Shown here piece by piece: positions 56,123 to 64,000 of a stretch of DNA of 64,000 nucleotides. A model generated the notes under the pieces. It was not told the DNA's origin and made no database searches. It was given only the letters and a program-made list of their open reading frames with translations. Position 1 is the stretch's first letter; the number at the start of each line of letters is the position of its first letter. This stretch comes from a virus. The DNA lies in IMG/VR virus record IMGVR_UViG_3300009068_000029, positions 17,511 to 81,510 of that record; one strand, given 5' to 3'. The position numbers and the translations under genes were made by a program.

Positions 56123-58132
56123 TTAGTATCGGAAGGGAGATGAGCTTGTACGGAACAAAGAGTTCCCTTTCTTTTCTCGGAAGTAAGCCTGGATTCTAGT
56201 ATCGTCACTTGAGTTCGAGATAACAACCTGAGTAGTAAGAGTCTTAGCCATAGCTAGAGTTAATCCAAATGAAATAACTCGGTCAACGTTTAACTTAGGG
56301 GTAAACTTAATTAACTCCTTAATCAAAAGAGGATCTAACATTCTGGTTACTCCTAGTCTTTCTTTTACAATAGCTCCATCTTCATCTCTCTCTACTTCTA
56401 TTACCTCGGTTATGTATTCGATAATAAGAGACATCAAATAGTTTTTAATGTCTTTAGTCATGTGAATACCGTAGTCACGGTTTACTGTAGAGTTAGGGTG
56501 AATGTCATTCAAGAACTTAGGCGTCTTCTCTAGAACCTTGGGAGATTCATTCTTGTCTACACAATGCTGGATAAAACCATAGTCCATGTTTTCACAAAGA
56601 GTCTTAGCATTGTAATACTTAAGAAGCATCTTAGTCATCTCATACCAAGTCTCAATCTTCTTAGGACGACCTGTGTAACAAGCTACAACTATATTCTGCC
56701 AACCTTCTCCGCTTAGATTGTGAACCCTCTTATAAATATAAGTAGAACCCAAAGAAGTTGAGTAGTGTGCCTGTGATTGTTTGTAAGGATCCGTTCCTGC
56801 TGTATAAAGTCCATAGGGGGCTTCTGACAGAGGATATTCCCAAATCTGAACACAACCCTCAATAGGATCTGTGGACTTAACAGGGAAGTTAATAACGGGC
56901 TTCTTGTCTGTAAACTTATGTCTTATCTTTCCATCAGAGTTAATGTAGAGTTCTACATTGTCTGCTTGAATCTCTTGAGCACTTAATTTCTGTAGTTGTT
57001 CTTGAAGTAAATCTACAGGGAATATGTTCTGAGATAGTTCTAAGAAACACTCTTCGTGATTCAAAGGATAGTACATTACTTCTTTTAAGTAAGCTTCTAA
57101 TCCATTTGATTTCTTAGTCTGTTCTCTAGACTTTAAGATAAGTTCTTTTCCTTTCTCTTCGTCTGCTACCCAGATCTTGATTATATCTAACTCAGAAGAA
57201 TCCTCTTTACCTAAGTAAAGTCCTAGGGGAGTTTCTTGCTTTGGAACTTTCAAAGAACGTGTACCTGGAATAAAGAGTCCATAAGACTTTCCTGTTTCAT
57301 TAGACTCTACAGGAAGGAAGTTATAGGCTTCAGGGTTATTAAATAACTCTTCTAGGTCTGATGCTTTAGTCATATCTCCAGAAGTTCCGATAACAAAAGG
57401 AGAACAACGCCATCCAAAAGGACTGTCAAAACAAGGAGTAGTTGCCGCTAAGCAAGAAAGGATCTTTCCTTTTCCTCCTTCTTCCAAAAGAAACGAAGAT
57501 AAAGTAAGACCTGCCGCTGCTTCTGTATTGTTGCCTTCATCAAAGTTTCGTACGTGGAACTTAGACCACTCATTACGTGCGTTAGTTTTCTTGTCTTTAA
57601 ATCCTAAAGTTACCTGTCTCTTCCAGTCATCTTCAATACGAGGAAACCTAAAGTAGTCAGGAAGGTTTCTAATACCTAAGTCTAAGTAGTCTGTGATTAC
57701 TTTTAAGTCAGGTTGGTTAAGCGCAGATATTAAGTTGTCAGAACCTTTCTGAGTAATCGCTTTGTGAGCCATGTAAGAAGAAGTTAGAACTGACTTAGAG
57801 ATACGTCTAGATCCTACCATTACAACTCCTTTCTTTCCGTCTACATGATTCTCTGCTTTGTGGATAGTTTCGTCTACTGCTAAGTAGGTATCCCAAAGCT
57901 GAGGTTTGTCTAGCTTCCTAACTTGACGCTTACCTACCATTGTATCTATGTAGATAGTCCAAAAGTTTAAGTGCCAATAGATAAAAGGCGAAAAATAAAA
58001 TCCATTAATAGTTACACCTTCTGTAATCTTCCTGTCTTCGTTCTCCCAAAATGCATCATACTCCTCTGAAGTAATATCAGGGAGAGACTTAACATTGATT
58101 AAGAATTCTGGACTTTCTAGATTAGCATGCAT
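56123..58132 (-). CDS. terL: Terminase large subunit
   Basis: 669 residues. Walker A: VGSRRISKS with K113. Walker B: FLLEEGGKG with E217 and E218, the catalytic glutamate pair typical of terminase ATPases. The C-terminal nuclease domain has YTAGTDPYKQ (D448), then ENMDYG near 515-520 and VNRDYGIHM, the metal-binding acids of the RNase-H-like fold. It packages DNA through the portal encoded next. It begins 1 nt after the 105 aa gene. The A-box is the unusual GSRRISKS form seen in crAss-like terminases. Confidence 0.9.
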   Translation of the reverse strand: MHANLESPEFLINVKSLPDITSEEYDAFWENEDRKITEGVTINGFYFSPFIYWHLNFWTIYIDTMVGKRQVRKLDKPQLWDTYLAVDETIHKAENHVDGKKGVVMVGSRRISKSVLTSSYMAHKAITQKGSDNLISALNQPDLKVITDYLDLGIRNLPDYFRFPRIEDDWKRQVTLGFKDKKTNARNEWSKFHVRNFDEGNNTEAAAGLTLSSFLLEEGGKGKILSCLAATTPCFDSPFGWRCSPFVIGTSGDMTKASDLEELFNNPEAYNFLPVESNETGKSYGLFIPGTRSLKVPKQETPLGLYLGKEDSSELDIIKIWVADEEKGKELILKSREQTKKSNGLEAYLKEVMYYPLNHEECFLELSQNIFPVDLLQEQLQKLSAQEIQADNVELYINSDGKIRHKFTDKKPVINFPVKSTDPIEGCVQIWEYPLSEAPYGLYTAGTDPYKQSQAHYSTSLGSTYIYKRVHNLSGEGWQNIVVACYTGRPKKIETWYEMTKMLLKYYNAKTLCENMDYGFIQHCVDKNESPKVLEKTPKFLNDIHPNSTVNRDYGIHMTKDIKNYLMSLIIEYITEVIEVERDEDGAIVKERLGVTRMLDPLLIKELIKFTPKLNVDRVISFGLTLAMAKTLTTQVVISNSSDDTRIQAYFREKKGNSLFRTSSSPFRY

Positions 58133-58133
58133 A

Positions 58134-58451
58134 TTAATTAAATTGTTTCATCTTACCATTAATCTCTTGAGAACCTCTAGCTTCTGCTTTCTGTTCTTCT
58201 TTCTCTCTCAACCTATCTACTACTTCTAGAAGAGCTAGGTATTCTTTCATAGTATCTCTTAAAGATTTGATTTGAGATTCTTGACTAGCAATAACCATAG
58301 GCATAGTTCCACCTTTAGCTGTTGGCTTCCACTCAATTCTATCTTTCAAAGAGTTGATAGGGTTGTTATCTATATAAGCTCTCCATTCAGTTAGGCGTTG
58401 TTCTGCCCACTCTAGTTCTGCTGATATGTATGATAGTTTCTTAACGGCCAT
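58134..58451 (-). CDS. Coiled-coil protein, small terminase candidate
   Basis: 105 residues, helical and charged: AELEWAEQRLTEWRAYIDN, then a Lys/Glu-rich coiled coil (QIKSLRDTMKEYLALLEVVD). Its position directly before TerL and its oligomerising helices make it the best candidate for a small terminase, although no helix-turn-helix is obvious. Starts with a GTG-free ATG overlapping the previous gene by 11 nt. An alternative is a portal or capsid assembly chaperone. Confidence 0.45.
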   Translation of the reverse strand: MAVKKLSYISAELEWAEQRLTEWRAYIDNNPINSLKDRIEWKPTAKGGTMPMVIASQESQIKSLRDTMKEYLALLEVVDRLREKEEQKAEARGSQEINGKMKQFN

Positions 58452-58644
58452 CTGAGTATTTCTTTAAAAATTCTTCTTGAGGCATATTCATGATGTCTTC
58501 TAGCACACGTGCATAGAAGTCATCATCTCTGCCTGTTTTACTATATGAATACCCCGCTTTCCAAAATATCTTAAACGTCTCGAATAAGTTATCTTGTAAA
58601 GTAAAGTTTACATAGGGTTGGGTGTTTGGTTGGTTGTCTATCAT
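58441..58644 (-). CDS. Small terminase-region protein, 67 aa
   Basis: 67 residues, acidic and aromatic (NLFETFKIFWKAGYSYSKTG), no membrane segment. It begins 1 nt after the stop of the 42 aa gene and overlaps the next gene by 11 nt, so the set is translationally coupled. Function unknown; proximity to TerL suggests packaging. Confidence 0.5.
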   Translation of the reverse strand: MIDNQPNTQPYVNFTLQDNLFETFKIFWKAGYSYSKTGRDDDFYARVLEDIMNMPQEEFLKKYSDGR

Positions 58645-58645
58645 C

Positions 58646-58774
58646 TTATTTTGCTTTAGAAGAAACCTTTAGTAAAGGTTTGTCGGCAGGCAAGAAGTAG
58701 ATCTGAACTCCACACTTGCTACCTGGTTTTTTGTCGCAACCGTTCTTGATGGTTACTGTTCTGTGCTTTTCCAT
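58646..58774 (-). CDS. Small basic protein, 42 aa
   Basis: ATG 58774 to TAA 58646, 42 residues (TVTIKNGCDKKPGSKCGVQI core). It overlaps the zinc-protein gene by 22 nt and stands directly before the 67 aa gene start. Two Cys (NGC, SKC) may bind zinc with a partner. Too short for most gene finders; the gapless packing with neighbours argues that it is real. Confidence 0.55.
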   Translation of the reverse strand: MEKHRTVTIKNGCDKKPGSKCGVQIYFLPADKPLLKVSSKAK

Positions 58775-59130
58775 TTTAATTCTATTTTATGTAAAGGGTG
58801 TTCTGCGTTCCAATCTGCTATTCCACAATCTGAAGATAGAGATGCCGTTTTGTAGGTAGCGATGCAGCCACAAAATGAACAGTGAAGTTCGTTTCTGTCA
58901 GTGCTGTAGTGCTTGCCTGTGAGTTGTACATACTCGGGAGAAGTGACTGCGTTTCTTGAATTGTAGGGACAATTAATACAAATGTCCATTCTGTCTGCGA
59001 TAATGTTCTGTTTTTCATTGCTTAGTAGTTTAAATTGATTCGCTGTCTTCGTTGCTACTCCCTCCAATACTTTGTTCAAATTCTTTAGCCCCTTCAGGCT
59101 CAGGGCCATGTACTCTTTGTAAGGATTCAT
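58753..59130 (-). CDS. Zinc-binding protein, 125 aa
   Basis: 125 residues. Cys at 51, 54, 84, 87, 89 and 102 in CINCPYNSRN, HCSFCGC and SDCGIADWN, a zinc-ribbon type layout that I associate with a protein encoded upstream of terminase in Bacteroidota phages. The N-terminal helix (LKGLKNLNKVLEGVATKTAN) is basic. It overlaps the IHF-like gene by 101 nt; a later ATG at 59109 would reduce this but not remove it. Role probably in DNA packaging or late regulation; not proven. Confidence 0.6.
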   Translation of the reverse strand: MNPYKEYMALSLKGLKNLNKVLEGVATKTANQFKLLSNEKQNIIADRMDICINCPYNSRNAVTSPEYVQLTGKHYSTDRNELHCSFCGCIATYKTASLSSDCGIADWNAEHPLHKIELKWKSTEQ

Positions 59131-59575
59131 ATAATTTCTGGTGGTTTAATAATTGTGTCTGATATGTTCTATCCATATACTCTATAGTTTGTTGGTTATA
59201 GAGTTTTTTAGATTGTCCTCTTTCGTATCTTTCTTTAAATAGTTTAAGCCAATCTTCTAGCATGTAGTAGTTAGCATAACCTCTGATTGCTGTGAGTCCT
59301 TGTCTTTCTGTTTCATAAGTTAACAGATACTCAGACTTAAGTTTCTTAGCTATTAGTTTGATTGCTCTAGAAGGATTAAAAACTAAAACTCCTAAGCCAG
59401 ATAATCTAACTTTAACTGTAGGTAACTCTACTATTTCCTCAATGGTTTTCTTTAAGTACCATTCGTATACAGTACTTACCTTATCAATAGTAAGACCCAT
59501 TTCTTTTGCTACATCTGAATAGGCAGCATAGGTCTTAATCTCAATGGTTTCGTATGTATCCTTTATTGAGGTCAT
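59030..59575 (-). CDS. IHF/HU-like DNA-binding protein, 181 aa
   Basis: 181 residues. The first 45 residues are two helices (EIKTYAAYSDVAKEMGLTID, YEWYLKKTIEEIV), then VKVRLSGLGVLVFNPSRAIK, the helix-helix-beta pattern of HU/IHF proteins. A basic central region and an acidic Ser-rich tail (IGGSSNEDSESI) follow. The tail overlaps the zinc-protein gene. The stop of the upstream wHTH gene overlaps this start by 4 nt. An architectural DNA protein in packaging or regulation is likely. It differs from the IHF-like protein at 42641-43132. Confidence 0.6.
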   Translation of the reverse strand: MTSIKDTYETIEIKTYAAYSDVAKEMGLTIDKVSTVYEWYLKKTIEEIVELPTVKVRLSGLGVLVFNPSRAIKLIAKKLKSEYLLTYETERQGLTAIRGYANYYMLEDWLKLFKERYERGQSKKLYNQQTIEYMDRTYQTQLLNHQKLYESLQRVHGPEPEGAKEFEQSIGGSSNEDSESI

Positions 59576-59925
59576 GCAGTTGCTAAAGCTTCTTGCTTAA
59601 GAACAGGTTGATCTAAAGTAGAAAGAATCAAAGTGAGGGTGACACCTTGCTTGCTAGTAGGACACAATCTTGGGTTGACTGCATTCTTTTCTAAGATACC
59701 CATCTTTCTTAACTTCGTTATCCCATTAGAGATAACTTGGATTGATGTATCAAACTCACTGGCGATTCTTTCTTTTACTACTTTGTCTAAAGTACCGTAA
59801 AATGAACTATGGGCTAATATACTGGTGTACAGATCGGATAATCTATATCCCGCAAGTCTTAATAGTACATCAATGTATGCTTGATGCAACTGAACTCCTT
59901 CTTCGTATTTACGTGCTACTTTCAT
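59572..59925 (-). CDS. Winged-helix DNA-binding protein, 117 aa
   Basis: Start set at ATG 59925 (MKVARKYEEG) because the AACCAACC leader ends there; an upstream in-frame start at 59979 lies in the promoter. The 117 residues contain LAHSSFYGTLDKVVKERIAS followed by EFDTSIQVISNGITKLRKMG, a winged-helix-turn-helix like that of replication initiators or MarR-type regulators. First gene of the packaging operon; it may be a late regulator or bind the packaging site. The C-terminus is hydrophobic and short. Confidence 0.6.
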   Translation of the reverse strand: MKVARKYEEGVQLHQAYIDVLLRLAGYRLSDLYTSILAHSSFYGTLDKVVKERIASEFDTSIQVISNGITKLRKMGILEKNAVNPRLCPTSKQGVTLTLILSTLDQPVLKQEALATA

Positions 59926-59949
59926 TGGTTGGTTTTGTTTTAACGTAAA

Positions 59950-59979
59950 CAAATATACTATCTTAACAAAAAAAGTCAA
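59950..59979 (-). promoter_or_regulatory. Bacteroidota-type promoter for packaging operon
   Basis: TTGAC (TTG = 59979-59977), 19 nt, TATATTTG (59957-59950). It starts the wHTH to portal operon. It faces away from the + strand promoter at 60098, with about 120 nt of AT-rich DNA between them. Confidence 0.85.
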
Positions 59980-60075
59980 GTTATATGTTAACTCAAATAG
60001 TACTTTTAACTTAAGATATTAATCGTATTAACTTGATTGTTAACACCTCTGATTATTTTTAGTGAAAACTATCCC

Positions 60076-60105
60076 TAGACAAAAAATAATTAAAGATTAT
60101 ATTTG
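60076..60105 (+). promoter_or_regulatory. Bacteroidota-type promoter (rightward)
   Basis: TAG at the -33 position (one mismatch to TTG; context TAGAC), 19 nt, TATATTTG (60098-60105). The expected start site is only a few bases before or within the Shine-Dalgarno at 60109-60115, so the mRNA leader is about 10 nt. Confidence 0.65.
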
Positions 60106-60108
60106 TAC

Positions 60109-60115
60109 AAGGAGG
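60109..60115 (+). promoter_or_regulatory. Strong Shine-Dalgarno AAGGAGG
   Basis: AAGGAGG with 7 nt to the ATG at 60123. It is the clearest Shine-Dalgarno of the window; the other genes generally have A-rich or AACCAAACC leaders, as usual in Bacteroidota. Confidence 0.75.
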
Positions 60116-60122
60116 ATTTGTT

Positions 60123-60395
60123 ATGTCGATGGATAAAATTAAAAAGCCAAATGCCCAAGAAGTGTTTGATATTTTCCTATTAGCACTGCAAGATGAGCAG
60201 GTAAAGCTAGAAGGGGATATAGGAGGATTTAAACTTGCTCTCTATGATGGCTTTAAAGCATTTACTTATCGTAAAAAATATAACGAAGAGATGCTTTTTG
60301 ACTACATTGAAGAAGCTTTAACAGAACTTTTAGATGAAGACCAGCCTATGCAACAGACTGACTACATGCATGCTCAGAAGCCAGCAGGAATTTGA
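60123..60395 (+). CDS. Hypothetical protein, 90 aa
   Basis: 90 residues, acidic, helical (QEVFDIFLLALQDEQVKLEG, DYIEEALTELLDEDQPMQQT), no membrane segment. It is a single + strand gene between two leftward operons, with its own promoter and a strong Shine-Dalgarno, so it is probably expressed early or under a different control. The downstream 388 nt hold hairpins and no clear gene. It could be a small regulator or an anti-host protein, but there is no motif to support either. Confidence 0.65.
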   Translation: MSMDKIKKPNAQEVFDIFLLALQDEQVKLEGDIGGFKLALYDGFKAFTYRKKYNEEMLFDYIEEALTELLDEDQPMQQTDYMHAQKPAGI

Positions 60396-60783
60396 TTCCA
60401 CAATTTATCAACACACGAGACTACTTATCTAAAAGTGACATTACCTTCGTAGTGACATCACATCTTTGTGTTCGCAGACGAGGATTTAAAAGTAATCTGC
60501 TAGAAGTTGGATAGTATGAGTAGCCCTCAGAGGTGAAAAGAGGTTTCTCCGATAGTGTCAAAATGTTCTAATAAAGTTTACAGTGCTCTAACCTACAACT
60601 AATAGACCGTAGGCAATAAGTGGACAGAATAGAGACTTAGCTCTGAGAGATTCTCAAAGGAGCTATTTGGTTAAAAACTGCTGTATTATAAGTTAGAATA
60701 GAAAGTCAAAATAGACTACTTCTCGGAGAGAGAAGGAACTTTTCCTATTTTAAAATCTCAACCCCAATCTTAATAAAATTGAA
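60396..60783 (+). other. Structured non-coding region / 3' UTR or small RNA candidate
   Basis: 388 nt between convergent genes. It has a hairpin at 60639-60664 (outer AGCTC/GAGCT, inner TGAGA/TCTCA, 3-nt loop, 3-nt bulge), a short hairpin at 60734-60746 followed by TTTT, and smaller inverted repeats near 60436-60470 (for example CACA-TCTT-TGTG). One 40-codon frame starting with TTG at 60392 overlaps the 90 aa gene by TTGA and is probably chance. No tRNA, tmRNA or ribozyme class recognised. The + strand promoter could give a long transcript ending near 60751. Confidence 0.4.
60734..60751 (+). terminator. Weak terminator of the + strand transcript
   Basis: AGGAA-CTT-TTCCT stem (5 bp) followed by ATTTT. 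Short but placed between converging transcripts. Confidence 0.45.
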
Positions 60784-61071
60784 TTACTTTTTGTTCTGAG
60801 GATTTCTAGGCTTGTACTTCCGTTTTTTCTTCGGCTTTACAACTAGATCTTCTACTACAGTTACTACAGCTATTGCTTCCTCCATTACCTTCTCAGCTGC
60901 TGCCTCAATTGAATTCTTAAGAATTTCTTTTTTAGGTTTTTTAGGAGCTTCAGGTTTTTGAGGAATTTCAGCTATCATTTGTTTATCCGCTTTATCCTGA
61001 CGGACAGCACAGATTATTAAAAATAATAGAATTACTACTAGTGAGAGTCCATAAGTTAGTTCCATTGTCAT
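60784..61071 (-). CDS. Membrane protein with basic tail, 95 aa
   Basis: 95 residues: one membrane segment at about 5-23 (YGLSLVVILLFLIICAV), then a Lys/Pro-rich part, a helix (IEAAAEKVMEEAIAVVTVVE) and a strongly basic end (KPKKKRKYKPRNP). A start two codons later (MELTYG) is also possible. Last gene of the right-hand operon. Membrane anchoring with a basic cytoplasmic or periplasmic tail suggests a lysis or envelope role; no family recognised. Confidence 0.55.
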   Translation of the reverse strand: MTMELTYGLSLVVILLFLIICAVRQDKADKQMIAEIPQKPEAPKKPKKEILKNSIEAAAEKVMEEAIAVVTVVEDLVVKPKKKRKYKPRNPQNKK

Positions 61072-61087
61072 TGTTGTTAGTTTTATA

Positions 61088-61348
61088 TTAGTTTTTATTT
61101 ATAAGTTCTTCTACGTATTTATCTCTTTGTTCCATTAGGTACTGATTACGCTCAATCATTCTAGCTCTTTCATCATCAGTAAGTTTAAGGATTAAAGTTT
61201 CTTTATCACTTATCATCTTTTTATACTCTTCCAACTGATTTTTAAAGTTCATGTTCTGGTAGTATAGAATTCCCACTAATAATATAATAGTGAAGGATTG
61301 CTCTTTCAGCTTATCAAAAAATGTTTTACCCATAGATCCTTCTTCCAT
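61088..61348 (-). CDS. Membrane-anchored coiled-coil protein, 86 aa
   Basis: 86 residues: short basic N-terminus, one membrane segment (about 13-30, FTIILLVGILYYQNMNF), then a charged coiled coil. This is the topology of an i-spanin or of an assembly anchor. It begins 1 nt after the DUF2589-like gene stop. It may be a second Rz-like protein, but no outer partner is visible next to it. Confidence 0.5.
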   Translation of the reverse strand: MEEGSMGKTFFDKLKEQSFTIILLVGILYYQNMNFKNQLEEYKKMISDKETLILKLTDDERARMIERNQYLMEQRDKYVEELINKN

Positions 61349-61349
61349 A

Positions 61350-61820
61350 TTACTTTGCTTGTCCTAGTGTTTGTATATAAGAGTCAATGATTCTAGAAAC
61401 AGCTTCAGGCTTTTCATCAGCTTTGAATTTAACTTTAATCTTAGCCATTCCTGAAGAAGTAGGATTAACCCCTGAGTCTACTTCAATTCCTTTTATATTG
61501 TGTTCATACCCCTTCTTCTTAAATAGTCCCAGTAGAGACCGCTTAAGGGTAGATACTTTCTTCTCATCATCTCCAAAGATTAGTCTAGCTTCAAACTCTA
61601 TATCTAACTCATCTAATCCAATAGAAGAGTGATCTGCTAGAATGTACAGAGGTACTAGTAACTCCTTTTCCCCAATCATAAACTTTGTAATAATGGGAGT
61701 ACCATCTGGATTAAAATAATTCAATAGAGAATTAATGTGTTGTCTTTCACTAATACTCTGAGAAACCATAGCGGCCTCTAATAGACCGCCAACTAGTTCC
61801 TCAATGTTTAATCTTGCCAT
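61350..61820 (-). CDS. DUF2589-type protein, second copy, 156 aa
   Basis: 156 residues. N-terminal helix (LNIEELVGGLLEAAMVSQ), a strand set with KELLVPLYILADHSSIGLDE and IEFEARLIFG, and an ending AKIKVKFKADEKPEAVSRII. This is the usual build of the DUF2589 family, whose genes often sit in tandem. The 196 aa gene upstream is a partner. Function of the family is not known to me. It is followed by a membrane coiled-coil gene and preceded by an endolysin-like gene, so a role at the envelope is possible. Confidence 0.6.
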   Translation of the reverse strand: MARLNIEELVGGLLEAAMVSQSISERQHINSLLNYFNPDGTPIITKFMIGEKELLVPLYILADHSSIGLDELDIEFEARLIFGDDEKKVSTLKRSLLGLFKKKGYEHNIKGIEVDSGVNPTSSGMAKIKVKFKADEKPEAVSRIIDSYIQTLGQAK

Positions 61821-61846
61821 ACAGCAAAGTTAGTTAAATTTTTTGA

Positions 61847-62437
61847 TTAATCCTTCTTAGTCAAAGGAACCAAAGATGGCTCTAACATTGCTGTAAGAAA
61901 ATCAGATAATTTAAGCATGCCTTCTGTTGGAGGCAATTGTTCTGCATGAACTTTTACTTCATACTTAGCTGAGTTATCACTCTGCCTAGTGTTCTCTTTG
62001 TGAGCACTTACACTACCACTTACTTTAGCGTTAAAACTCATACCCCACCAGCTACCACCTGCAGATACTTCATATCCTGTCTGAGAATCATTAGAATCTT
62101 TAGACATGTCTGAAGTTTTTACTTCCATAGTGAAATTGATGTCAGCAGAAGTAATTGCCAAAGAAGGCAACGGAACCAAAGGAAGCATAGGAACTTTACT
62201 GTAAACAGTTTTAAGTTCTTGAACTCCTGTCTCTCCATCTGTGAATACACGTTGCATCTCTACGTCAAGTGAGCGTGCAACATTAGCATCACCTTTTTTC
62301 TCAAAAGCTACCTCAGAGATGTATCTCCAAGTTACTTCATTTAATTTAGCTTGTCCTTTTGCCATTCCGACAATAGGGCTTAGAATGAGTTCTTCGATAG
62401 GAAGTCCTCTGAATTGATCTGCGATTGAATCTGCCAT
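61847..62437 (-). CDS. DUF2589-type protein, first copy, 196 aa
   Basis: 196 residues. N-terminal helical part (ADQFRGLPIEELILSPIVGM), then beta-rich: KVPMLPLVPLPSLAITSADI, ending SAKYEVKVHAEQLPPTEGML. The VPLLxLVPIPSL and VHAEQxPxPEGL motifs are the core of DUF2589. Paired with a second, shorter member 26 nt downstream. It is a non-canonical cargo for a crAss-like phage lysis region. Whether it acts on the host envelope or in the virion is unknown. Confidence 0.7.
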   Translation of the reverse strand: MADSIADQFRGLPIEELILSPIVGMAKGQAKLNEVTWRYISEVAFEKKGDANVARSLDVEMQRVFTDGETGVQELKTVYSKVPMLPLVPLPSLAITSADINFTMEVKTSDMSKDSNDSQTGYEVSAGGSWWGMSFNAKVSGSVSAHKENTRQSDNSAKYEVKVHAEQLPPTEGMLKLSDFLTAMLEPSLVPLTKKD

Positions 62438-62464
62438 AATTTATATATTAGTTTGTGTTGTTTT

Positions 62465-62668
62465 TTATTTGAATTTAACTGTGCCTGCATATGAACTCTT
62501 AACACTCTCTATCTCTTTAATTGCAGAGTAAAAGGAAGTTTTTATTTCCTCATTTATTGTGAAGTTAAAAACAGTGTTGCAGTGTGGGCATCCTGACTTA
62601 GGATTCTTTAAGATAAACTTTAAGTCTAAGCCTAGGGGTTCTTTACACATTGGACAAGGTAGAGCCAT
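62465..62668 (-). CDS. Zinc-ribbon protein, 67 aa
   Basis: Start set at ATG 62668 (MALPCPMCKEPLG); the in-frame start at 62725 would overlap the endolysin gene end and add a hydrophobic leader. Two CxxC pairs (C5/C8 and C27/C30) form a typical zinc ribbon, followed by a beta segment and a helix. Small zinc ribbons bind nucleic acids or proteins. The location between endolysin and DUF2589 gene gives no clear function. Confidence 0.65.
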   Translation of the reverse strand: MALPCPMCKEPLGLDLKFILKNPKSGCPHCNTVFNFTINEEIKTSFYSAIKEIESVKSSYAGTVKFK

Positions 62669-62675
62669 AGTAATT

Positions 62676-63263
62676 TTATATAATGTCCTTAGACTCAATA
62701 AGAGTGTATGTAAAAGAATTAGCACTCAATGATGCAGCTTTCTTACAAATAGCCAAAAACTTATCAAAGTCAGCAGACTTCTTAAATACTTGGCAACCTT
62801 CTGACCAGTTCTCAACATAGGTAGAATCTGCGCCCGCTTTATGAATATTAATACCATACAAACCTTCTGTAATTTTAGTCTCATCGTACACCATATCTTT
62901 ATTGGCATCACGATAAACTTTAACATTAGCTTTCTGTTTTAAAGCTTCGTATTTTCCTTGGTGTAATCCAATAGCATGTGAGCCAGGGTATTGACCAGGT
63001 ACTAAACGTGCAACACCTCCAGCATTATGGAATTCTTTAACTCCTTTAGTTCCTGGATCTGTTGTTGCAGGCCAAATAAGAAATTTCCATACAGCACCTT
63101 CTTTATAACTTAAAGTCAACCAATCATCAAATACATTGGTTACTTTTTTTCCTGGTGCACTGTTACGGATTCCAATGATATTAACATTGAATTCTCCGTT
63201 CTCAAAGTACTTGTAGCCTTTAGCTTTAACAGCAGCTTCAATTTGTTCTCTAGTGTAACTCAT
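62676..63263 (-). CDS. L,D-transpeptidase-like (YkuD-type) protein, endolysin candidate
   Basis: 195 residues. The second half has GLYGINIHKAG (H141) and ENWSEGCQVF (S154, C157), the H...SxGC catalytic pattern of L,D-transpeptidase/YkuD-like enzymes. Before it, LVPGQYPGSHAIGLHQG (H96, H101) may belong to the same site. Similar proteins act as phage lysins that cut or exchange peptide cross-links. No signal peptide, so export would need holin action. It belongs to the operon with small membrane proteins upstream. An alternative is a virion-associated peptidoglycan enzyme. Confidence 0.65.
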   Translation of the reverse strand: MSYTREQIEAAVKAKGYKYFENGEFNVNIIGIRNSAPGKKVTNVFDDWLTLSYKEGAVWKFLIWPATTDPGTKGVKEFHNAGGVARLVPGQYPGSHAIGLHQGKYEALKQKANVKVYRDANKDMVYDETKITEGLYGINIHKAGADSTYVENWSEGCQVFKKSADFDKFLAICKKAASLSANSFTYTLIESKDII

Positions 63264-63307
63264 AATTAGTTGATTTATTTAGTTTATAGTTTATAGTTTA
63301 TAGTAAA

Positions 63308-63556
63308 TTACTCTTCACTCTTATTATTATGCTTCCGCAGAATTTTCTCAACAGCAGTTAAAGAAAGACAACCAAAAGCCAATAAAGAAACTGCCTGTAT
63401 TAAAGGAACAGAGGGAGCAAAGTGTTCTTCAGTAAAAGAATTAGCGTACAATGTAGCGCATAATGTTAGTGTGCAGATTAAACCACATAGACGTTTCATA
63501 GAAACAGAACCTTTTTCATCCTTGAAAAGTTCTCCAATAAAGTTTATTATTTTCAT
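63308..63556 (-). CDS. Holin-like protein with two membrane segments, 82 aa
   Basis: 82 residues with an amphipathic start, two membrane segments (about 23-40, LCGLICTLTLCATLYANSF; and 51-68, LIQAVSLLAFGCLSLTAVE) and a basic end (KILRKHNNKSEE): the class II holin build. Overlaps the 40 aa gene by 4 nt (ATGA). Placed directly before the L,D-transpeptidase-like gene, so it could be the partner holin; a second candidate holin is at 5088-5525. Confidence 0.65.
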   Translation of the reverse strand: MKIINFIGELFKDEKGSVSMKRLCGLICTLTLCATLYANSFTEEHFAPSVPLIQAVSLLAFGCLSLTAVEKILRKHNNKSEE

Positions 63557-63675
63557 GACTTTGTTTTTTTGTTTTTTAAAAATTTAATAATGTCTTCTAT
63601 AATCCACTTAGAAAGTAGAGCAGTGAGAAAAACAGTTAAACTCACCAATAGAGTGATATCTGAGAAAACGTTCAA
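63553..63675 (-). CDS. Small single-pass membrane protein, 40 aa (TTG start)
   Basis: The frame between an upstream stop and the holin gene starts only at TTG 63675: a 40-residue peptide with one membrane segment (ITLLVSLTVFLTALLSKW) and a basic tail (FLKNKKTKS). The stop overlaps the holin start (ATGA), which supports a real, coupled gene. It may be an antiholin or accessory membrane protein. Non-ATG start and short length lower the certainty. Confidence 0.4.
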   Translation of the reverse strand: MNVFSDITLLVSLTVFLTALLSKWIIEDIIKFLKNKKTKS

Positions 63676-63730
63676 AGCAACTTCGGACTTTCATATATAA
63701 TACTTAAGGTGAGAAAAGGTTGGTTATGGG

Positions 63731-63760
63731 CAAAGATAAAACTTTAAAAAAATAAGTCAA
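63731..63760 (-). promoter_or_regulatory. Bacteroidota-type promoter for right-hand operon
   Basis: TTGAC (TTG = 63760-63758), 19 nt, TATCTTTG (63738-63731). It drives the 40 aa, holin-like, endolysin and DUF2589 genes. A terminator for the next gene upstream lies 17 nt away at 63777-63806. Confidence 0.8.
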
Positions 63761-63776
63761 CTACTTAACTATTAAA

Positions 63777-63806
63777 CAAAAAACCCCCAGATTTCTCTGA
63801 GGGTTT
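63777..63806 (-). terminator. Intrinsic terminator of the gene at the right edge
   Basis: Leftward AAACCC-T-CAGA-GAAA-TCTG-G-GGGTTT with one mismatch, followed by TTTGTTTAAT. It ends the gene at 63835-64000 and isolates the promoter at 63731. Confidence 0.75.
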
Positions 63807-63834
63807 CTTTTAAACTAATAGTTTAACAAATTAC

Positions 63835-64000
63835 TTAAATTACTTCTGCCTGAGTAAAGGGAACTACAGGAGTTTCATCAGCAGGTACTTCAGCAGGGAT
63901 GTGCTCAAATGAATCCAAGTTGATTTGACCTTTACCGTAGTTAGCTTCAATAGATTGGAAGAACTCATTCTGTTCTTTTACTACTTCTGCCATTGCTTCT
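63835..64000 (-). CDS. Unknown protein, partial or 52 aa
   Basis: The frame is open from the window edge to the TAA at 63835. If the ATG at 63993 is the start, the protein has 52 residues (AEVVKEQNEFFQSIEANYGK start, acidic Pro-rich end). If the frame runs on past 64000, this is only the C-terminal part. Acidic, no motif recognised. It has its own terminator. Confidence 0.5.
   Translation of the reverse strand, partial: EAMAEVVKEQNEFFQSIEANYGKGQINLDSFEHIPAEVPADETPVVPFTQAEVI

What the first reader, a model, noticed from the sequence alone, without database searches (positions are those of the whole stretch)
61350..62437. Tandem DUF2589 pair beside an endolysin
Two proteins of the same fold (196 and 156 aa) are encoded between a zinc ribbon plus L,D-transpeptidase-like enzyme and two membrane proteins. 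DUF2589 proteins are common in Bacteroidota genomes in multi-copy clusters, and their role is unclear to me. In this phage they may form a heteromeric complex acting at the envelope or against a host system. This is the best candidate for an undescribed system in the right part of the window.
Basis: partly seen in the sequence, partly recalled or inferred. Interest (0 to 1): 0.55.

Follow-up and report, generated by a model that had tools for sequence, protein, structure and literature searches.

The report
Paired DUF2589 genes in phage lysis region
A virus of bacteria carries two related genes of unknown function that travel as a matched pair, often with a small zinc-binding protein, and in many viruses and some bacteria they sit near the gene for a cell-wall-cutting enzyme, so they are good candidates for an overlooked part of how phages break cells open.

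Summary
Window 61350-61820 and 61847-62437 (minus strand) encode two DUF2589 proteins (Pfam 2e-12 and 1e-29). The pair is not a local oddity: 46 of 46 records searched (41 viral contigs, 4 bacterial plasmids, 1 faecal contig) hold exactly two DUF2589 hits. In the 46 loci where one "long" and one "short" gene were called, they lie on one strand, in either order, median gap about 25 bp, largest 985 bp. Flanks differ between phages. Hits of four peptidoglycan-hydrolase families and one peptidoglycan-binding domain lie within 2 kb in 16 of 26 cases (4.4 expected); terminase (3 of 8) and helicase (0 of 6) are not enriched. Three bacterial plasmids show the same with unrelated hydrolases, and one short protein carries an inserted peptidoglycan-binding domain. 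Best reading: a heteromeric accessory of the lysis step; the step itself is inferred. A virion role remains possible: two contigs have the unit beside a capsid gene, and 31 of 46 records have no such hit within 2 kb.

The parts
61847..62437 (-). DUF2589 protein, long type (196 aa)
   Evidence: PF11655 1e-29; 141 confirmed relatives in one viral scan, the 80 kept are 70-95% identical; exactly two DUF2589 hits per record in 46 of 46
61350..61820 (-). DUF2589 protein, short type (156 aa)
   Evidence: PF11655 2.1e-12; neighbour of the long gene in 46 of 46 measured loci; PG_binding_1 insertion in the relative L080
62465..62668 (-). small zinc ribbon (67 aa from the ATG at 62668), third gene of the unit
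   Evidence: both CPxC motifs invariant in the 15 aligned sequences, window included; labelled in 17 of 49 non-redundant loci, order varies
62676..63263 (-). endolysin candidate (195 aa)
   Evidence: phrog_33083 endolysin 1.1e-13, phrog_3000 3e-36; no Pfam match
63308..63556 (-). small hydrophobic protein (82 aa), possible holin by position only
   Evidence: maximum hydropathy 1.83; no Pfam match and only a weak PHROG match (0.033, unknown function); holin role inferred
61088..61348 (-). small protein TM86, possible spanin-like by position only
   Evidence: phrog_739 Rz-like spanin only at 0.072; weak hydrophobic stretch; found in the closest phages and a few others
60784..61071 (-). small protein with an N-terminal hydrophobic helix (95 aa)
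   Evidence: maximum hydropathy 2.78; no family match over cut-off

Best explanation
The two DUF2589 proteins are the two subunits of one heteromeric assembly, joined in many phages by a small zinc ribbon, which works as an accessory of cell-wall breakage at the end of infection. I think it is made late in the cytoplasm and works together with whatever peptidoglycan hydrolase the phage carries, either holding or timing the enzyme or acting at the wall once the inner membrane is open. SHOWN: pairing in every record searched, co-occurrence as a unit in different genomic surroundings, linkage to hydrolases of different families in phages and on bacterial plasmids, a peptidoglycan-binding domain inserted in one short protein. 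INFERRED: physical complex, late expression, action on the hydrolase or the wall.
For: Exactly two DUF2589 hits in 46 of 46 records from 4 kb to 3.17 Mb; also in 8 of 8 records (one of them, G002, is among the 46) and in both genomes with hits of the 245. Pairs: 46 of 46 on the same strand, gaps -44 to 985 bp; long and short distances correlate (Spearman 0.65, 0 of 2000 permutations as high; shared ancestry contributes). Five families (Phage_lysozyme, SLT, Glyco_hydro_19, Peptidase_M15_3 and the binding domain PG_binding_1): 16 of 26 counted hits within 2 kb, 4.4 expected, P 2.3e-10; in records of 20 kb or more 9 of 19, 1.2 expected, P 1e-7. The only Phage_lysozyme hit on the 3.17 Mb Burkholderia stagnalis replicon is 95 bp from the pair; two Vibrio plasmids have an SLT enzyme 1.1 and 1.6 kb away; the Deltaproteobacteria Smac51 plasmid has an N-acetylmuramidase about 2 kb away; a faecal contig has pair, zinc ribbon and a PG_binding-muramidase enzyme within 4 kb (muramidase by clustering with the Smac51 enzyme). 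The hydrolases are of different families. The short protein of L080 contains PG_binding_1, 5.9e-7, above cut-off.
Against: The five families were chosen after looking at neighbours, so the P values are optimistic. 15 of 46 records have such a hit within 2 kb and 31 do not. Portal (P22_portal, 4 members), terminase and Gp23-type capsid proteins are also among the near neighbours; in two contigs, taken to be L020 and L246, the capsid gene is next to the unit. A Streptomyces plasmid with two annotated DUF2589 genes shows no annotated hydrolase in the 7.2 kb seen. Neither protein has a transmembrane-like stretch by hydropathy, so reaching the wall would need an opened membrane. DUF2589-related genes are mentioned in the archaeon Archaeoglobus fulgidus (PMC3949148, one passage), which I recall has no peptidoglycan. 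Only one short protein with a peptidoglycan-binding insertion was noticed. Models are low confidence (pLDDT 59 and 63) and match no solved fold at E <= 0.001.
Confidence: 0.47

Rival explanations
1. Virion or morphogenesis factor: the heteromer is a capsid-associated or assembly protein, placed among late genes.
For: Gp23-type capsid genes (2 members), taken to be those of L020 and L246 from their order, lie next to the unit. P22_portal has 4 members among the near genes, and in L226 and L230 the pair lies about 1.1 kb from Terminase_6C. High conservation suits a structural role.
Against: Terminase_6C is not enriched within 2 kb (3 of 8, 1.9 expected, P 0.27). Four bacterial plasmids carry the pair without a Terminase_6C hit (other terminase families were not searched), three of them with a hydrolase hit within 2 kb. 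No capsid, tail or assembly family matches the two proteins.
Confidence: 0.23
2. Host-takeover or counter-defence complex: the pair blocks a host system and the zinc ribbon helps it bind a target.
For: Small, apparently soluble proteins on a unit found in many different phage surroundings look like accessory genes.
Against: No convincing PADLOC match. The pair is also linked to hydrolases on bacterial plasmids, where blocking a host system makes less sense.
Confidence: 0.12
3. General cytosolic scaffold of bacteria and archaea with no special tie to lysis; linkage to hydrolases only reflects clustering of late genes.
For: DUF2589-related genes in Archaeoglobus (PMC3949148, one passage). 31 of 46 records have no hit of the five families within 2 kb.
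Against: The linkage is also seen outside phage late regions: Burkholderia replicon 95 bp, Vibrio plasmids 1.1 and 1.6 kb. The PG_binding_1 insertion is not expected for a general scaffold.
Confidence: 0.18

Closest known systems
DUF2589 (Pfam PF11655)
   Same: Both proteins score above the family cut-off over nearly the whole profile.
   Different: The Pfam line seen here says only 'protein of unknown function'. The split into a long and a short partner, the zinc ribbon and the hydrolase linkage come from this work.
Phage spanins (Rz/Rz1) and disruptins
   Same: Non-enzymatic proteins of lysis regions beside an endolysin gene.
   Different: Spanins are membrane-anchored or lipoproteins and disruptins are short cationic peptides (recalled). 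The DUF2589 proteins show no hydrophobic anchor and have 156 and 196 aa.
Accessory lysis proteins such as mycobacteriophage LysB
   Same: An extra gene in the lysis cassette that works with an endolysin (abstract starts only).
   Different: LysB is an esterase; no catalytic family matches the DUF2589 proteins, which occur with several endolysin types.

Membership tests
DUF2589 (PF11655) | profile score above the curated cut-off of 23 bits | tested here: met
   104.3 and 48.1 bits
Endolysin | known peptidoglycan hydrolase domain in the protein itself | tested here: not met
   no hydrolase family for either protein in Pfam, PHROGs or NCBIfam
Holin | transmembrane helices | tested here: not met
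   maximum 19-residue hydropathy 1.36 (long) and 1.23 (short)
Spanin | membrane anchor or lipoprotein signal | tested here: not met
   no hydrophobic anchor by hydropathy; no dedicated lipobox program was run
Lysis-cassette accessory (works like) | genomic linkage to peptidoglycan hydrolases above chance | tested here: met
   16 of 26 counted hits within 2 kb, 4.4 expected; families chosen after inspection, 31 of 46 records without a hit within 2 kb
Lysis-cassette accessory (works like) | effect on lysis when deleted | not testable with these tools
   needs a bench experiment
Virion structural protein | presence in purified virions, or match to a structural family | tested here: inconclusive
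   no structural family match, but capsid and portal genes are neighbours in some contigs; virions not testable here
Anti-phage defence or counter-defence | match to a described system protein | tested here: not met
   PADLOC: long 0.03, short none
Heteromeric complex | direct binding of long and short protein | not testable with these tools
   only pairing and correlated divergence shown; monomer models are low confidence

The most novel reading that the evidence does not exclude
The DUF2589 long and short proteins form a heteromeric machine that is an unrecognised class of lysis component, distinct from holins, endolysins and spanins. It is carried as a cassette between unrelated phages and kept by bacteria with their own peptidoglycan hydrolases, for example for controlled self-lysis or release of the hydrolase.
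Probability: 0.25. Interest if true: 0.85.

Novelty: new variant of a known kind. Interest (0 to 1): 0.55.

Why it matters
A family of unknown function turns out to be a two-gene unit that is frequent in environmental phage contigs (386 confirmed relatives in one viral scan), yet the window proteins match no PHROG family and nothing in 50,697 GenBank phage records (a Vibrio relative used as query matched one 4 kb unverified faecal contig). If it acts in lysis, a step thought to be understood in outline gains a conserved player, and the bacterial copies would point to programmed use of peptidoglycan hydrolases. The idea is directly testable by co-expression and deletion.

Tried and rejected
Solved-structure searches by sequence: nothing for the long profile up to E = 10, two matches at 0.13 and 1 for the short. 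Fold searches of the two low-confidence models: no solved match at E <= 0.001; the long model has one BFVD match at 7.6e-8, A0A516MP19, 38% identical and unnamed; the short model was not run against BFVD. MscS-like channels appear among the weak matches of both models, but TM-scores are about 0.1-0.2, so I drop this. Defence reading: PADLOC without a convincing match. Holin identity of small neighbours (BhlA-like and XhlA-like by eye, names recalled): Pfam gave no support, so it is not used as evidence. M15/VanY-like neighbours of L187, L192 and L209: the one scanned (L192) matches Peptidase_M15_4 only at 0.004, below cut-off, so they are not in the counts. Rfam: nothing at gathering scores in 58000-64000. 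Promoter and terminator scan: uninformative. The genome-contig scan gave one locus and 2 of 245 genomes in the phylum of that bin carry DUF2589 (that bin included), so Bacteroidota chromosomes could not be surveyed. Papers: 'DUF2589' is in 1 paper and 'PF11655' in none of the held library.

Rows dropped: L168 and L179 were left out of the neighbour lists, because my ORF caller was unreliable in GC-rich DNA. Of 254 near genes two very long ones (L182:6907-12201, L183:2059-5532) did not enter alignment A10, leaving 252. From the 28 hits two were dropped before the count of 26: the PG_binding_1 hit inside the short protein of G002, and the Glyco_hydro_19 hit of G262, which lies in the same ORF as its PG_binding_1 hit. 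Three of the 49 representatives (L146, L163, L179) were not in the 46 records. The measured pairs leave out L178 (both genes labelled long), L179 and L180 (one gene labelled). The short-protein alignment left out 4 of 41 listed rows (L080, L185, L193, L210). Family tallies list only the first 25 families and do not name members; where I name a locus for Gp23, portal, Muramidase or DnaJ-type matches I infer it from order, length and clusters.

Full report
What is there. The window is bases 17511-81510 of an 81.5 kb virus record, so its right end is the contig's end. The large terminase (56123-58132) matches phrog_6681 and is 39% identical to that of Leptolyngbya phage Lbo-JY46 and about 29-31% to 'uncultured phage cr' records from faeces and Cellulophaga phages phi4:1 and phi17:2. 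I recall those as crAss-like, so I take this phage as a distant relative of that group. On the minus strand, in order of transcription, lie an 82 aa hydrophobic protein, a 195 aa endolysin candidate, a 67 aa zinc ribbon, the long DUF2589 protein, the short DUF2589 protein and two small proteins.

The pair. Both proteins match PF11655 above cut-off. One viral scan with the long protein gave 141 confirmed relatives, of which 80 were kept; one with the short gave 74 in 73 loci; a profile scan of the long gave 386 confirmed. Clustering the long proteins at 90% (single linkage) left 49 representatives of 268 loci, many of which overlap on one contig. A profile search of 46 of these 49 records found exactly two DUF2589 hits in each, including replicons of 253 kb, 311 kb and 3.17 Mb. 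These records were found through the long protein, so the result says that a second, different copy always comes with it. In the 46 loci where my models labelled one long and one short gene, both are on the same strand; gaps run from -44 to 985 bp, 26 of 46 at 25 bp or less; in a few, another gene lies between. Orders over the 49: short-long 16, long-short 14, zinc-long-short 10, long-short-zinc 5, long-zinc-short 1, long-long-zinc 1, long only 2. One search also shows short-zinc-long, for example in L027.

A unit with a third member. The zinc ribbon was labelled in 17 of 49 loci, including a phage-like contig in a bacterial bin, where short and zinc frames overlap by 4 bp (L146), and a faecal contig (L178). 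In the closest phages more of the neighbourhood is shared; in most other loci the window's further neighbours are not found while the unit stays, and the flanks look unrelated.

Link to cell-wall hydrolases. Among 252 genes within three positions of the unit in 47 loci, endolysin families head the PHROG tallies. The Pfam tallies include Phage_lysozyme (2 and 5 members), PG_binding_1 (3), Glyco_hydro_19 (3), and one each of Muramidase, Glyco_hydro_108, SLT, Peptidase_M15_3 and DPBB_1; they also include P22_portal (4), Terminase_6C (2) and Gp23 (1 and 1). Among 145 genes at positions 7-9 none of the 25 listed families is an endolysin (families lower in the lists are not shown). Searching the whole records for Phage_lysozyme, PG_binding_1, SLT, Glyco_hydro_19 and Peptidase_M15_3 gave 28 hits, 26 counted, 16 of them within 2 kb, with 4.4 expected. 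One of the 16 is in a 4 kb record where any place is near. With records of 20 kb or more only, it is 9 of 19 with 1.2 expected. Terminase_6C gave 3 of 8 (1.9 expected) and Helicase_C 0 of 6 (0.2 expected). The five families were chosen after looking at neighbours, so the probabilities overstate the case. The strongest cases are on bacterial plasmids: Burkholderia stagnalis (lysozyme 95 bp away, the only Phage_lysozyme hit on 3.17 Mb; three SLT hits there are far away), Vibrio tubiashii and Vibrio sp. 16 (SLT at 1.1 and 1.6 kb), and Deltaproteobacteria Smac51 (muramidase about 2 kb away). A fifth plasmid, from Streptomyces, shows no annotated hydrolase in the 7.2 kb seen. In L080 the short protein carries a PG_binding_1 domain.

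Counter-evidence. Thirty-one of 46 records have no hit of these five families within 2 kb. Some are fragments or may carry other endolysin types, but this is not shown. In two contigs, which I take to be L020 and L246, the unit is beside a Gp23-type capsid gene. [quoted passage not shown] I recall that this archaeon lacks peptidoglycan. A purely wall-directed function would then not hold for the whole family.

Mechanism. Both models show a long N-terminal helix, beta strands and a C-terminal helix, at low confidence. The long type has a conserved stretch around TRSTDNSAKY. My best guess is a soluble long-short heteromer, sometimes with a zinc ribbon, that partners a peptidoglycan hydrolase and holds, times or assists it at lysis. 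Pairing and linkage are shown; binding, timing and site of action are inferred.

Literature. In the held library 'DUF2589' occurs in one paper and 'PF11655' in none. Searches on lysis, spanins, crAss-like phages and unknown domains were seen as listings with abstract starts only. Of PMC3949148 I saw one passage.

The binding domain is now named apart from the four hydrolase families, the second dropped hit, the portal neighbours and the Streptomyces plasmid are told, and 'adjacent' is limited to what was measured. Confidence in the lysis reading went from 0.48 to 0.47 and in the virion rival from 0.22 to 0.23, because of the portal neighbours.

Noticed in passing
L080 8703-9413: Short DUF2589 protein of a 253 kb viral contig carries an inserted PG_binding_1 domain.
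   Followed up: partly
L165 8917-9192, L166 8930-9193, L167 10836-11111, L180 8687-8968: A conserved 87-93 aa protein follows the long gene in four loci, three of them bacterial plasmids; the one scanned has no Pfam match.
   Followed up: partly
L178 1020-1799 and L278 2127-2939: A 259-270 aa protein sits between the two DUF2589 genes in two related loci and may be a third, diverged partner; L278 also has a LytTR regulator upstream.
   Followed up: partly
L278 2956-4956: An integrase gene follows a shortened short-type DUF2589 gene, as if an element had inserted there.
   Followed up: no
L020 5972-7609 and L246 6330-7865: Large proteins directly before the unit are taken to be the two Gp23-type capsid matches.
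   Followed up: partly
L242 3291-3452 and L243 7042-7206: Other small CxxC proteins (taken to be the two DnaJ_CXXCXGXG matches) lie beside pairs without the usual zinc ribbon, hinting at replaced zinc partners.
   Followed up: no
L167 1-8279: On the Vibrio sp. 16 plasmid the pair lies downstream of a peptidase-domain ABC transporter, an HlyD protein, a YcaO protein and a gene annotated as a TcdA/TcdB catalytic glycosyltransferase domain protein.
   Followed up: no
L003 7165-7764: A homing endonuclease-like gene (phrog_314) sits just upstream of the zinc ribbon, one of several genes between it and the endolysin gene that is adjacent in the window.
   Followed up: no
window 60396-60783: About 390 bp without an ORF of 50 aa or more between the end of this gene row and a converging gene; no Rfam match.
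   Followed up: partly
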